Positions 3,269-19,641 of a stretch of 64,000 nucleotides of DNA are shown in pieces. Positions within the stretch are counted from its first letter, which is position 1; each line of letters begins with the position of its first letter. Both the position numbers and the translations under genes were made by a program. The DNA is from Grifola frondosa (taxonomy: Eukaryota > Basidiomycota > Agaricomycetes > Polyporales > Grifolaceae): assembly GCA_001683735.1 (NCBI GenBank), contig LUGG01000001.1, positions 248,001 to 312,000 of the forward strand. The letters run 5' to 3'. The notes beneath the pieces are model-generated. The model was not told the origin of the DNA and did no database searches. It worked only from the letters and a program-made list of their open reading frames with translations.

Positions 3269-6005
3269 ATGCCTCGACTCTCTAGGAGGAGTCGCAGTAC
3301 ATGTAAGGGGACTTTCGATCCTCGCGATGCTCAGCGTGTCAAACATACCCGCATCGGCGTGTGGGACCTCTACGAGGAGATCCAGCCAGAGCTTGCACAT
3401 GTACCCGGTTCGTCGAGACTCGAGCATTATCTTGAGATGTATCAGAGCTTCCCATATTTGTGGAGAATGATCAAGGACATTCTCAGTATACAAAGCTGCT
3501 GGTGGTTATTGGTTCTCTATTTTTCTGTGGATGCTGTAGAATCGTTGCTGCCCGCTGCTGCTCTGTGGTATTAGTGTTCGTTGTCTCGCTTGACATGCTC
3601 TCTGCTGAGGTACTTCCCATCGGCAGGTATTCTGGCCAACTATTAACTATTGTACGTTCTTCATACGCCACGCCACGTACGCTTTAACATGAATGCTCTG
3701 TAATACAGCTGCAAGTTGCGATAGATACACGCACTGTTGACAAGGAGCTTCTCCTGCGCATATCCCTTGGGCGCATCGCATGTACCGTTCTGAAGCGAGT
3801 GCTCTCCTCCGTCAGAGCACGGCTCTCGTACCCGCTCAGCATTCGTGTCAAGCAACAATACTCGATCCACCTCTTCCACGCCCGCGCGCGACTCGACCTC
3901 CCGACGTTCGAGGACTCTGCGGTGCAGCGCCAGCTCGAAGATGCGTCCAACTCATCCGGGAACGGGTTCGCATGGGACAGCCTGCAGATGGCGATTCACA
4001 TCATAACCGCCGCGGTAGAGGTCGTGTCCCAGGTAGGAGTACTCGCAAGCGTTCTGAGGGACCAGCGCGATGGGTTGTTACTCGCTATAATCAGCTGCTC
4101 TGCGTCGGCGTTTGATTGGTTTAAGACCCAAGGAGCATTTTCGCGCGCAGTAGGTATGTATTCAATGGCGTTGTGAAAACGTTGGTTAACGTATATGAAC
4201 TCAGTATGGGCGGCCACGACGAAGAACAAGGATTACATTCGGATGCAGGGTCTAAAGCGTGTTGTCAATGACATAGAACATCGCAAGGAATTCATTGCAG
4301 GGAATCTCGCGGGTTTAGCACATCAGGTAGGAACAGCATATCATCTCTATATATCGCTGAAATACAGCTTCCATCGGTAGAATTCAGAGAAATGGTGCAT
4401 CGTGTAGGCATTGACGCCGGAGACTACTGGGAGTTACTGGAATCGCGACCCATCCCGATGAAGCTTAGATACATGTCATTATGGCAAGACCCTCTTCGGG
4501 AGTTGCCTCAAGTACGTCGTTCCATTCTCGTGTCTGATATCTAATCTCACACTATTACAGATTGTCTTCACGCTACGTGCCGTCCAGTATCCTTCTTCGA
4601 TGCCAGTTTCGCTCGCGTCCTTGAACCTCATTCAACAGACGACGCTGCGCTTCACTTTGGCATTATACGGTTTGTTCCAGAGGACTGGTTCTGTTGCAAA
4701 ACAGCTAGCGGCCGTGCGCAGACTGTATGAGGTGGCGAAGATTCCGAACCGCGTTGTTGATGGGGCTGTTCCCTTTCCTGAGGATGCACAGAATCTTGTA
4801 TCGGGCGTTTCTCTAGAGTTTAGGTCAGTAGGCTGGCTCCTTTTTCCCTCGATAGGTTTGAATGTCTTGTTTTTGGACACAGGAATGTATCGTTCAAATA
4901 TCCGGGCGCCGAGAACTTTGCAATCCGCAATGTATCCTTCAAACTCGCTCCGGGGCAGCTTTGCGTACATCTTTCATCTTCTCCCGCAGATCTATACATG
5001 TTTATAACGTCCCGCCAGGTTATTGTTGGTGCCAACGGCTCTGGGAAGAGCACAATTCTGAAGCTCATTGTCCGCCTGTACGACCCTGAAGAAGGACAGA
5101 TATTCGTCAATGGACTGGACATTCGAACGTTGAAGCTCTTCGACTTGCGTCAGGCGATATCCGTCCTATTCCAAGACTACACTCACTTTCCCCTCTCGGT
5201 CAGTATGCCGATGCCCACACTGGCTCCAGGTCTCACTGTCCATTTCCTATTCATAGATCAGAGACAACATCGCACTTGGGGACCCTTCAAACTTCCGAGA
5301 TGACGAACGCGTTTATAAAGCTGCGAAGTTGGGTGGCGCTGAGCAATTTATAGAGCGCCTGTCGGACGGATTCCATACTTACCTAGAGCGTCCCGTGCGC
5401 GATTATTATGCCGGGCTCCCTGAGGGCACGCATACGCTGTTTGGACGAGACGTCAACTATTCTGCGGTTCGTGAGCAGGGAGCCATGACCTCGACGAATG
5501 GACCCTCATTGAGCGGGGGCCAAATGCAAAGACTTGCCGTGTTTGTATCCGGATTCGCGCTCTACGTATGGTGGCTAATTAATGTGTTGTTACAGTTCAC
5601 GAACATTCATGCGGTCGATTGTTTCTGAGGACGCAAAGGTCGGGCTGCTGCTCTTCGACGAGCCGAGTGCTTCTCTGGATCCAACTGCGGAGCACGGTGG
5701 GTCCTCCGGCTGGAGCGGCGTCTTGTCACTGACATTTTCCACAGATCTCTTCGCAAGACTTCGTGAGCTTCGCGGGAGCAAGACCATGCTCTTCTCATCA
5801 CACCGCTTCGGGAGCCTCACGCGACATGCCGATCTGATTCTGTCAGTCTCAGCGAGTCGCCTTTCTGGATGACGCATGCTGACGATGTGATTCCAGGTAT
5901 ATGAACAATTCTGTGATCGTGGAGGCCGGAACTCACGACGAACTACTGAAAAAGGAGGGAGAGTACGCGCGCATATGGATGCTCCAAGCACAAGCGTTCC
6001 TCTAA
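3269..6005 (+). CDS. ABC transporter, half-size, fused TM and ATPase domains
   Basis: ATP-driven membrane transporter with one membrane domain followed by one nucleotide-binding domain. Twelve exons read cleanly: 3269-3567, 3627-3651, 3709-4153, 4205-4326, 4368-4511, 4561-4823, 4883-4964, 5019-5198, 5257-5540, 5596-5696, 5745-5841 and 5897-6005, giving about 716 aa. The ATPase part shows Walker A (VGANGSGKST), the signature (LSGGQMQR), Walker B (LLLFDEPSASLD) and the switch His (SSHR). The membrane part has several hydrophobic segments but diverges from classical exporters. It belongs to a fungal group often annotated only as a P-loop or HlyB/MsbA-like ABC protein. Exon 2 is 25 nt. The substrate cannot be inferred. 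It is convergent with the DUF6534 gene. Confidence 0.9.
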
Positions 6006-6282: not shown

Positions 6283-8374
6283 TCAGACTTCTTCCTCGGG
6301 CACGGCATCCATTTTACTCTGGGTGCCGCTGAATTGCTGCAGTGCAGTCAGCATGTTCCGAATATCTGCGACGGTAGCCAGTGTCACTCACCGCCATAGA
6401 ATGGAAAGTCGTCAGATTGGATCCGTGGGTGCTCAAGTACGTCTGGTGGATGTCGTGTCAGAGCAAACGTGCGTGGGATCATGCGTCTGAGCTAACCTTG
6501 TCTATACTCTCTGGAGGTGCGACGCGGAACTCGGACAGAGCGACACTTCCCTCCGCTGATGTTGCTATCGCGCGCAGTGATTCCCGGGAGTTGAGCCTGA
6601 GAAACGTCAGGGTTTGTAAGGTGGTGCATGGATCTGTAGATGCCCGGAATCATACATGGCAAGGAGCGAATTTGCGTAGACTGCCAGGTGGGGTTGTCAG
6701 CATCAGTGAGGCATCCACGGAGGTGGACATGGGACGTACAGTTGTTGACAAAGCCGTAGAAAAACAGATACACCAGGTTATTAGGCATGGTAAGGAACTG
6801 CACGCAGATGTCAGGCGCAGGTGTAATTGAGGAACCAACGAAGCGTACACAAATCAGTATGACGATGTCTGTAATGCTATGGATTTCGGTCAGCCTGATT
6901 TTGCCCAGAGCGAAGATATCAAGAATACCTTGTCAGTAAGCCAGAGCTGATAGTGTACATGATAATCTTATTCATAATCGTGTTCGTGCTGTCAGGAGTC
7001 CGTGTTATTGCAAGCTAGGGGCTCTGTACAAAGGATAGTTGGCTCGCCTTTTGATGCTTGAGCGTCTTATCACCAAGAAATAACACATCGACGATGCAAT
7101 TGTGATATCCACCGCAGCAGCAAGAGCGAGACCGGTGGTGAAGTATGGCTGTCGGCAGTACAGATATGAGATATCAATTTGCGTGTTAGATGTAATAACG
7201 ACGGCTGGACTCACAGCTATCTTATGGAATTCAGCGTAGTCTGGCATCTTGAATCTGGAAGGTCAGTTGAGTACGCATCTTATCTTCTATTCATTAGCGC
7301 TCACGTCAAGCCCATAACGGCTGTAGAAACGTCATGTCAACGGTTAGGATGGTGCTAGCTATATACCTGAAGTCGGATGCTTACCGATCTCGAACCCTGC
7401 GTTCAGCAGTTCGAGTCAATACGATAATCAAAGCCCAGGCTGATAGTTTTGAATCTCACCGAAGTGGGCTATGGCAAGCGCAAACTGTGAAACCATAGAT
7501 CTCAGTTATTTTACGCAGATAATACTATCGTATGTGGCTTACCGTGATGAACGACAGATACCAATTCCTGTTGCTCACTGGAAATGTCTCAGTGGCTGAT
7601 GTAGTTACCTTGGATTTTGAGAGACGTACTAATCCAGATTCTCCGGGCATAGAAGCTATTTACAGAATTAAGCACAAGTTGATCTCAGTACAAGCGTGGA
7701 TCCGCACCATTGTACGACAAGTGTTATCAAGGCCTGTATTCGAAAATTGCATTAGTGTTCAGTCTATCTTGAGCATCATCTTAAGTGAGCCCTACCGTAA
7801 TACCAGTTGTAACCTAGAAGTTGCTAATGCATTAGCTTGGGAAAACTTGGCTCCTGTGGTACAGGCTCACATCATCTACACTGTAGATTGAGAAATTCAG
7901 AAATAAATCTTTTCTCATAGTATCAAGACATACTGTGTAGTCGCGAGCAACGCAGAAGGGTTACCATAATTTGTGATCAGGTTCCAGTACAGATAGTGGC
8001 CGATTAGAAATTCATGAGCAGTCTCCAAAATCCTATGGAGGAAAGTTCGTGAATACGAATTCCACAACCGGATGTGTATCGGAGGTGGCACACAGACCAT
8101 ATGAAAGTGACCTGTCATCGACCCGCTCTGAATAAGTCTTCCGACCATTAAATACACGTGGTTCGCTACATACAGTAGATTTAAGAAACTGTGTATCGTT
8201 CTTGCCGAAACGGATGAAGTACAGGTACGTTTGAAAGGAAGTAAATCCGTACAATCTACTTATGTGTTAGCAAACCTGCGGGAAATGCACGGGCAAACAC
8301 GTTACTGACACAGACGAAATCAAAATACTAATGGACATCGCGCCATAAGTCGGACCTAGATTTGTGGTAGACAT
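6283..8374 (-). CDS. DUF6534 seven-helix membrane protein, copy A (21 exons)
   Basis: Fungal multi-spanning membrane protein of unknown function. Typical family blocks are present: NLGPTYGA at the N-terminus, then FTSFQTYLYF, FLIGHYLYWN, QCFYARRIW, TGLALAAAVDITIA, LTMPNNLVYLFFY and LNSRESLRA. I resolved 21 exons: 8310-8374, 8174-8258, 8098-8111, 7934-8032, 7871-7880, 7796-7813, 7708-7733, 7630-7655, 7543-7577, 7460-7484, 7385-7396, 7305-7320, 7215-7254, 7048-7148, 6929-6988, 6849-6876, 6740-6797, 6656-6680, 6497-6596, 6392-6442 and 6283-6336. They total 948 nt in frame (315 aa). Exons of 10, 12, 14, 16 and 18 nt occur. The intron after 7048 has a GC donor. Copy B has nearly the same exon map, which supports this model. 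Confidence 0.85.
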
Positions 8375-17573: not shown

Positions 17574-19641
17574 TCATGCCTCCTGGAGCTCCACCGTAGG
17601 ATAGAGTGTAGCACTTCGGCCTGTGCGAGTCTGCTAAGATAGTATAAGTCTCTTGCGCGAGAAGGTATTTGCGAAACTCACCATAGATGTTTCAAAAGTA
17701 CTCCTCATATCCGAGCCGTGACTACCTATCCAATTCTGCCAGCGTTAAGGATGAGTGACCACCAAAGAGTAGATTATAAGGTCCAACCTTGTCTAGCTTG
17801 TGAGGTACGCCGGGCGCAACTTGGAACTCGGACAGAGCAATGCTTCCGGAAGTATCTGCATCGACGATTGCTCGCAATGATTCGCGAGAGTTGAGCCTAA
17901 CAATAATTAGATGTTAAGAAAGAATGTACGTTGTGGAACGTACATGGCAAGGAGCGAATTTGCGTAGACTGTTGAAAATCATACTTGGTTAGGTATTTGT
18001 AAATAGTGGTGTTGAACGTACAGTTATTGATGAAATCATAAAAAAACAAAAACACCAAATTGTTGGGCATCGTGAGGAACTGTATAATAATGTTAAGACA
18101 GGCAAGGAAGGGCGGTCACCCAGCGTCACGTACGCAGATGAGAATCACGATATCAGTTATACTGTCATATGGGGTTAGTGCCAGATTTGCTCTGTTGTAA
18201 AGAAGTCGACGGACCTGGTCAACATGCCCGAACTGACTGTGTGCGTGATGATCTTGTTCAGAATGGCATTCGTGCTATGTCGCAAGACAGGTTTAGAAAG
18301 AGCGGGGTATGAGGGCGAAACACTCGCCTTTTTATACCACTGCGGTTTATCGTCAAATAATAGGAAATTGAGGCCGCAATGGTGATATCGGTTGCAGCAG
18401 CAAGCGCAAGACCAGTAGTGAAGTACGGCTGTCGCAAACACGAGCTTACAGTACAGAACCTAGTACGGAAATCCGTGCAACAGTGACACACCTTAGCTAC
18501 CCGTTCGAAATCAGTATATTGTGGCAAAAGAAATCTTCAGAGGGGAATATAAGTGTATGATCCAATACAGACAATACGAACTAACGTTAAGACCATAACA
18601 GCTATGCAAAGCTGTGTGTTAATAAATAGAATTGTATGTTGACTCTTGCTTGCTTACCGATCTCGAAACCTCATGGCCAAACATCTTAGTTAGTGACTAT
18701 ACGAGTCGAAATTGATGAGACTTACCGAAGTGGGCCACGGAAAGAACAAACTGTGATAAGGTAGAGTGAGTCGTTTGTCGAAACTAGCCACGCGAGATGT
18801 CACTCACTGTAAAGGTAGGTAGGTACCAGTTCTTGTTGCTCACTAAACATATCAACATATCTATATCTTGGTACCAGCCATCATGATCTGACTGCGAGAC
18901 GTACTGATCCAGATCCTTCTCGAATAGAAGCTGACTTCAACCATTCAGCAAATGTTATATCGGCATATAGCATGCATCCGCACCATTGCACAACCAGCGT
19001 TATCAATGCCTGCATTTGATCAGATATAACATATGTGGTATCATGTAGCTCACCGTAACACCAGTTGTAACCTAGTAGTTGTCATTATTATTAGGTGCAA
19101 CTTGAGAAAACTGCGCGCGGATGGTCAAAACTCACATCGTCGACGCTACGGTTAAGTCATTGTCATTTAGACCTGTAATTATATGCAAAACGGGAGGACG
19201 TACTTCGTAGTCGCGACTAACGCGGAAGGGTTTCCGTAGTTTACAATCAAGTTCCAGTATAAGTAGTGACTAACGAGGAATTCATGAAGTGTCTCCAAGA
19301 CCCTGCCAAATATAACAATGAATAATACTTATCGTCAGCTTCATGTTGATGGTATATGGGTATACGCACCATATGAATGCTACCTGTCATCCCGACATTC
19401 GAATGAGTCCGCTGACCATTAAATGTAAGCTCGCACCATACCATGCACTTGAGAAGTCGCCTATCATTCTTGCCAAAACGTATGAAGTAGAGATACGTTT
19501 GGAAGGATGTAAATCCATACAACCTACTAAAGGGTCAACGAGTCTGAAAGCAAATAATTATAGACGTCTTACTGGCACAGAAGATATTAAGATACCAATC
19601 AATGTTGCACCGTACGTCGGGCCAAGATTCAAGGTTGACAT
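17574..19641 (-). CDS. DUF6534 seven-helix membrane protein, copy B
   Basis: Paralogue of the gene at 6283-8374. The ATG at 19641 starts MSTLNLGPTYGA. The same blocks follow: FTSFQTYLYFIRFGKND, the 14-nt exon for VAFIW, FLVSHYLYWN, the 10-nt exon, VTTGVT, ALITLVVQ, CFYSRRIWI, SNKNWYLP, VLSVAHF, the 12-nt exon, TGLALAAATDITIA, ITDIVILIC, LTMPNNLVFLFFY and LNSRESLRAIV. The ending is QTRTGRSATLYPTVELQEA. The GC-donor intron after the AAAAG of exon 14 is shared with copy A. Intron 1 also needs a GC donor here, where copy A has GT. All joined exons stay open. I infer an old duplication with about 9 kb now between the copies. Function is unknown. Confidence 0.82.

What the first reader, a model, noticed from the sequence alone, without database searches (positions are those of the whole stretch)
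6283..8374. A 315-residue membrane protein assembled from 21 exons, many of 10-26 nt
DUF6534 copy A joins 948 coding bases from 21 exons, a mean of 45 nt. Exons of 10 (7871-7880), 12 (7385-7396), 14 (8098-8111), 16 (7305-7320) and 18 nt (7796-7813) are flanked by GT/AG-type sites, keep phase, and restore family motifs. Introns outnumber coding bases. Exons this small lie below the length usually thought to allow exon definition, so intron definition must carry nearly all of the splicing. Automated annotation would probably call this a pseudogene.
Basis: partly seen in the sequence, partly recalled or inferred. Interest (0 to 1): 0.8.

Follow-up and report, generated by a model that had tools for sequence, protein, structure and literature searches.

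The report
Receptor-like genes with conserved tiny exons
A maitake mushroom gene for a seven-helix, receptor-like membrane protein is cut into 21 pieces, some only 10 to 18 letters long, and most of its relatives found in the same genome are cut at the same places, so this looks like an old, working gene design and not a broken gene.

Summary
The gene model is real. A spliced alignment to a profile of 17 non-Grifola homologues, holding no intron information, finds the same 18 core junctions: score 490, best of 300 shuffles 26. It is not a one-gene oddity. Copy B (19641-17574) also has 21 exons, 17 of equal length. Of 30 other DUF6534 loci in the genome, 27 share the ladder: 411 of 486 intron positions match, 35 expected; three loci share none. 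In public relatives, 21 of 30 internal insertions fall on these junctions, so the ladder is probably old in Agaricomycetes. Copies A and B are under purifying selection (dN 0.14, dS about 2). The pseudogene forecast is wrong: Grifola frondosa A0H81_00119 is this locus with all the small exons; only start and one GC-AG intron differ. Fungal microexons are known; I found no report of this ladder. No RNA reads could be checked. Side lead: two models match yeast Ste2 best.

The parts
8310..8374 (-). exon 1 (65 nt), ATG at 8374
   Evidence: start also in copy B; public annotation starts at 8338
8174..8255 (-). exon 2 (82 nt)
8098..8111 (-). exon 3, microexon of 14 nt; helix TM2 (place read from the copy B model)
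   Evidence: same length in 27 of 30 other loci
7934..8032 (-). exon 4 (99 nt)
7871..7880 (-). exon 5, microexon of 10 nt; start of TM3
   Evidence: same length in 21 of 30 other loci
7796..7813 (-). exon 6, microexon of 18 nt; TM3
   Evidence: same length in 24 of 30 other loci
7708..7733 (-). exon 7 (26 nt)
   Evidence: 24 of 30 other loci
7630..7655 (-). exon 8 (26 nt)
   Evidence: 24 of 30 other loci
7543..7577 (-). exon 9 (35 nt)
7460..7484 (-). exon 10 (25 nt)
   Evidence: 16 of 30 other loci
7385..7396 (-). exon 11, microexon of 12 nt; TM4
   Evidence: 16 of 30 other loci
7305..7320 (-). exon 12, microexon of 16 nt; TM4
   Evidence: 15 of 30 other loci
7215..7254 (-). exon 13 (40 nt)
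7048..7148 (-). exon 14 (101 nt), followed by a GC donor
   Evidence: copy B has the same exon and a GC donor
6989..7047 (-). intron 14, GC-AG (gcgagc...cag), placed differently in the public annotation
6929..6988 (-). exon 15 (60 nt)
6849..6876 (-). exon 16 (28 nt)
   Evidence: 22 of 30 other loci
6740..6797 (-). exon 17 (58 nt)
6656..6680 (-). exon 18 (25 nt)
   Evidence: 15 of 30 other loci
6497..6596 (-). exon 19 (100 nt)
   Evidence: first 64 nt; whole
6392..6442 (-). exon 20 (51 nt), poorly conserved tail
6283..6336 (-). exon 21 (54 nt with TGA stop), poorly conserved tail
17574..19641 (-). copy B (public A0H81_00123): 21 exons, 17 of the same length as in copy A; GC donors at introns 1 and 14

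Best explanation
An intact, functional gene of the fungal DUF6534 seven-helix family. Its coding sequence is cut by about 20 short introns at positions that most paralogues share, so the microexons are constitutive coding pieces of an old gene layout and not regulated cassettes. Shown: gene model, shared positions and phases, purifying selection, short introns with ordinary splice sites. Inferred: each intron of 50-66 nt is recognised on its own (intron definition), and the two introns beside a 10-18 nt exon are removed one after the other, because two spliceosomes cannot sit on it at once. Also inferred: the ladder predates the split of several Agaricomycete orders and persists mainly because intron loss is slow.
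For: Intron-blind profile alignment recovers the model (shuffles). Copy B: 17 of 21 exons of equal length, while its introns resemble those of A hardly more than shuffled ones (mean identity 0.55 against 0.53) and dN 0.136, dS 1.98. 27 of 30 other loci, at 20-35% identity to A, share 411 of 486 intron positions and phases; random placement 35.0, maximum 56 of 1000 trials. In 117 public homologues 21 of 30 internal insertions of 5 or more residues lie within one residue of an A junction (chance 0.175, p 3.5e-10) and 20 of 52 deletion ends do (p 2.8e-4): misread introns and dropped exons at the same sites in other species. 28 homologues are uninterrupted reading frames on contigs under 3 kb (hand-picked from the list); 23 of 28 fill all five microexon segments, as spliced transcripts would. 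Introns beside microexons have the same donor, acceptor and length statistics as the others (p 0.66, 0.88, 0.15). Sequential removal: shown for plant microexons (PMC8831610, passages).
Against: No RNA reads were available: inclusion in mRNA is not shown for this gene. That the 28 short contigs are transcripts is inference. Exons 11 and 12 were resolved at exact length in only 16 and 15 of 30 other loci; in 8 and 9 of the rest an intron of 85 nt or more sits in their place, which may hide a missed exon or be a real loss. Three loci share no intron position. A branch-point motif CTRAY was found in 135 of 397 introns (58.9 expected after shuffling) and in 10 of the 18 core introns of A.
Confidence: 0.9

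Rival explanations
1. The microexons are regulated cassettes: inclusion or skipping switches between a full receptor and shortened forms, as reported for one Trichoderma transcription factor.
For: Exons 6 (18 nt) and 11 (12 nt) can be skipped in frame, and skipping exons 3, 5 or 12 gives early stops at residues 56, 95 and 150, so switching is possible. A precedent exists in a filamentous fungus (PMC11121469, passages).
Against: Three of the five lengths are not multiples of three. Splice sites beside microexons are not weaker than others. 23 of 28 uninterrupted homologues fill all five segments and the other five are shorter proteins. No extra synonymous conservation in microexons: among the 30 closest paralogue pairs listed, synonymous difference was lower in microexons than in long exons in 5. 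A versus B did show lower pS in microexons (0.45 against 0.73; 25 codons), a weak hint the other way.
Confidence: 0.07
2. Copy A is a decaying pseudogene whose frame only appears open because splice sites were chosen to suit.
Against: An intron-blind alignment finds no stop, insertion or deletion over 268 profile columns; copies A and B diverge at synonymous sites about 15 times as fast as at amino-acid sites; the GC donor is also in copy B; public annotation calls it coding.
Confidence: 0.03
3. The shared junctions are an artefact of my aligner, which would place gaps where the profile is weak.
For: The same profile was used for all paralogues.
Against: The profile carries no intron data; shared sites agree in phase as well as position, with exact exon lengths whenever both flanks were found; two different profiles give the same junctions for A and B; public annotations made independently give the same exons; the three odd loci share none.
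Confidence: 0.02

Closest known systems
Microexons of Phanerochaete chrysosporium cytochrome P450 genes (PMC1184071, abstract and passages)
   Same: White-rot Agaricomycete; exons down to 6 bp; small introns; members of one gene superfamily.
   Different: There the microexons are spread over families, with about one third of the genes carrying any; here five sit at fixed places through most of the family found.
One-nucleotide exon of Fusarium CYP621A (PMC12940212, first third of the text read)
   Same: Fungal, constitutive, inferred from intron phase and a conserved motif, found by homology; a double-length intron was the clue.
   Different: A single exon in an ascomycete gene, backed by RNA reads.
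Conserved plant microexon clusters (PMC8831610, abstract and passages)
   Same: Position, phase and size conserved over deep time; often misannotated; mostly constitutive.
   Different: At most two clusters per gene in the passages seen; introns flanking them are enriched in splicing motifs, which my comparison of splice sites did not show here.
PRP-40-dependent neuronal microexons of animals (PMC8378409, passages)
   Same: Exons too short for exon definition.
   Different: Those are regulated and mostly have long introns; the two PRP-40-independent ones, with very short introns, are the better parallel.
Basidiomycete alpha-amylase genes with 8-22 introns (PMC3584928, passages)
   Same: Very intron-dense basidiomycete genes with short introns.
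   Different: There introns were gained after gene transfer; here most are shared by distant paralogues.

Membership tests
DUF6534 (Pfam PF20152) | Pfam profile match above the curated cut-off | tested here: met
   78.6 bits against 28.2, residues 166-253
DUF6534 (Pfam PF20152) | Seven membrane helices | tested here: met
   On the model of copy B, 78% identical to A over the aligned part: seven long helices and a short eighth, mean pLDDT 83.6. Copy A itself was not folded.
Microexon (30 nt or less; strict 15 nt or less) | Length | tested here: met
   10 of 21 exons are 30 nt or less; three are 15 nt or less
Microexon (30 nt or less; strict 15 nt or less) | Included in mature mRNA | tested here: inconclusive
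   No reads available; uninterrupted homologues on short contigs contain the segments, their origin as transcripts is inferred
Intron-defined splicing | Introns short, exons not limiting | tested here: met
   Introns 50-66 nt; median 55 nt over 397 introns of 25 genes, introns over 75 nt having been left out of that set
Intron-defined splicing | Spliceosome assembles across the intron | not testable with these tools
   Needs biochemistry
STE2 class 1 fungal GPCR (Pfam PF02116) | Profile match | tested here: not met
   None of 51 members matched at E up to 10, within the limits of HMMER's filters
STE2 class 1 fungal GPCR (Pfam PF02116) | Ste2-like arrangement of helices | tested here: inconclusive
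STE2 class 1 fungal GPCR (Pfam PF02116) | Couples to a G protein, binds a peptide pheromone | not testable with these tools
   Needs experiment

The most novel reading that the evidence does not exclude
DUF6534 is a large mushroom receptor family with a Ste2-like fold, in fungi said to lack Ste2, and its genes keep one ancient ladder of five microexons in helices 2 to 4. Each receptor mRNA must then pass about ten strictly ordered intron-defined splicing steps, and the ladder is kept because that splicing gates receptor expression.
Probability: 0.12. Interest if true: 0.75.

Novelty: new member of a known kind. Interest (0 to 1): 0.45.

Why it matters
One genome holds at least 113 exact copies of five fixed microexons of 10-18 nt: 103 in other loci (sum) and 10 in copies A and B. 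That is a natural set of replicates for asking how intron definition handles exons too short for exon definition, and in what order neighbouring introns leave. It also warns annotators: public DUF6534 proteins carry stray insertions and losses exactly at these junctions, in a family already proposed as a new class of fungal GPCRs (PMC12842992, section 3.5 and passages). Against a Grifola frondosa average of 5.97 coding exons of 217 nt per gene (PMC12028448, passages), 21 exons of 45 nt is extreme, but it is a variation on known intron-rich fungal genes.

Tried and rejected
Stronger splice sites next to microexons: not found (donors p 0.66, acceptors p 0.88, intron length p 0.15, CTRAY p 0.20). 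For that test seven loci (L001, L002, L009, L014, L017, L026, L030) and all introns over 75 nt or off the A positions were left out.

Extra synonymous conservation in microexons as a sign of splicing signals: A versus B suggested it, the 30 closest paralogue pairs listed did not (higher than in long exons in 25 of 30, perhaps partly from alignment errors).

Dating the ladder by a tree: the three loci without the ladder form one long-branched clade whose place is unsure, and the tree has no root, so loss and regain versus outgroup stays open.

Sequence link to STE2: none by Pfam. The genome search with PF02116 found nothing, but its control genomes did not ring either, so it shows nothing. No PDB sequence match.

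Plasmid DNA search: no match, as expected. Six raw neighbouring reading frames: no Pfam match.

Papers: 8 searches. The four papers holding 'DUF6534' were looked at by passage (one section of PMC12842992 in full); those passages do not speak of exons. So 'undescribed' means not found by these searches.

Full report
What was claimed.

The gene model. On the minus strand I joined exons by splice sites and phase, giving 945 nt and 314 residues (recount). The protein matches Pfam DUF6534 at 78.6 bits against a cut-off of 28.2. To remove hand bias I built a profile from 17 homologues from other sources and wrote a spliced aligner that knows codons and generic splice dinucleotides but no intron positions. 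It returned the same 18 core junctions with no insertion or deletion, score 490.3. Dinucleotide shuffles of the region (300) had mean 18.3 and maximum 26.4. Apart from tiles touching copies A and B, tiles of the window on either strand listed reached at most 27.0. Nine short exons were tested one by one by shuffling the interval between their neighbours: 0 of 500 shuffles reached the real score in each.

Public annotation. The locus is Grifola frondosa: P0001, A0H81_00119, equals a 21-exon splice of this stretch exactly, and P0002, A0H81_00123, equals copy B. The annotation of A differs from my model in two places. It starts at 8338, while copy B and many homologues carry the upstream N-terminus. 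It places intron 14 at 7073-7015, reading LLAITRTPD where my model, with a GC donor at 7047, reads VIRRSSIK; copy B reads TINRSGIK there, which favours the GC donor. So the pseudogene forecast fails, though one junction was probably misread.

Copy B. It has 21 exons, 17 of the same length as in A, the same 18 core intron positions and phases, and GC donors at introns 1 and 14. Exons of A and B are alike while introns are hardly more alike than shuffled ones (0.55 against 0.53). dN is 0.136 and dS 1.98; dS is near saturation, so the ratio of about 0.07 is rough.

The family. A Pfam search of the whole genome gave 30 other loci (a lower bound by the tool's own note). Intron-blind alignment with a second, broader profile of 29 proteins scored 98 to 411 (40 shuffles of one locus: maximum 24.5). 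In 27 of 30 loci the introns fall at the positions and phases of gene A: 411 of 486, with 35.0 expected by random placement and a maximum of 56 in 1000 trials. Exact-length microexons: exon 3 in 27 of 30, exon 5 in 21, exon 6 in 24, exon 11 in 16, exon 12 in 15. Where exons 11 and 12 were not resolved, an intron of 85 nt or more usually sits there (8 of 11 and 9 of 12 ladder loci), as if the exon were hidden; this was not resolved further. L002, L014 and L026 share no intron position with A and have 6 to 8 introns. Some ladder genes have extra introns, for example exon 4 split into 42 and 57 nt in L011, L016 and L025.

Other species. Genomes of other fungi were not available, so I read the traces left in public proteins. 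Among 117 homologues, 30 internal insertions of 5 or more residues were found; 21 lie within one residue of an A junction where 17.5% would by chance. Of 52 ends of internal deletions, 20 do. Examples: Serpula at intron 17, Punctularia at intron 10, Mycena vulgaris at intron 7, Ganoderma sinense at intron 15, and Mycena metata and a second Serpula protein lacking the exon 3 segment (species names). Nine of 30 insertions and 32 of 52 deletion ends do not fit. Of 28 homologues that are uninterrupted frames on contigs under 3 kb, picked by hand from the list, 23 fill all five microexon segments, and one (P0012) holds an insert at intron 3 that reads like a retained intron. I infer that these are assembled transcripts.

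How it probably works. All 20 introns are 50-66 nt. Over 397 introns of 25 genes, donors follow GTRNGT, acceptors YAG, 10 use GC, and introns beside microexons do not differ from the others in donor, acceptor, length or branch-point motif. This fits recognition intron by intron with no special help. Two published results fit: in C. elegans, microexons with very short introns do not need PRP-40 (passages), and in plants the two introns beside a microexon leave one after the other (passages). That both hold in this fungus is inference. Skipping exon 3, 5 or 12 would truncate the protein at residues 56, 95 or 150; skipping 6 or 11 stays in frame but removes part of helix 3 or 4.

Known or new. 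Fungal microexons are in print. What I did not find in print is a fixed ladder of five through a gene family (searches). I file the finding as a new member of a known kind.

Noticed in passing
window 7047-6989 and 18327-18275 (introns 14 of copies A and B): A GC-AG intron conserved in both copies; the public annotation of copy A avoids it and so carries about nine probably wrong residues.
   Followed up: partly
L002, L014, L026: Three DUF6534 loci form one clade and share none of the 18 ladder introns but have 6 to 8 others: either an outgroup, or complete loss and regain of introns.
   Followed up: partly
L010, L012, L015, L018, L019, L020, L022, L024, L027 (contigs C3 and C15): A set of nine close DUF6534 copies on two contigs that look like recent duplicates (pS 0.16-0.40 in the closest pairs, pN/pS often above 0.5), unlike the strongly constrained A/B pair.
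   Followed up: partly
models of P0002 and P0029: Best structural match of DUF6534 proteins is the ascomycete pheromone receptor Ste2, about 4 Z units above the best non-Ste2 rows, with no sequence link.
   Followed up: partly
window 5510-5550, plus strand: Reads LSGGQMQRLA in one frame, the ABC transporter signature as I recall it; an ABC-type gene probably ends just before copy A. Not searched.
   Followed up: no
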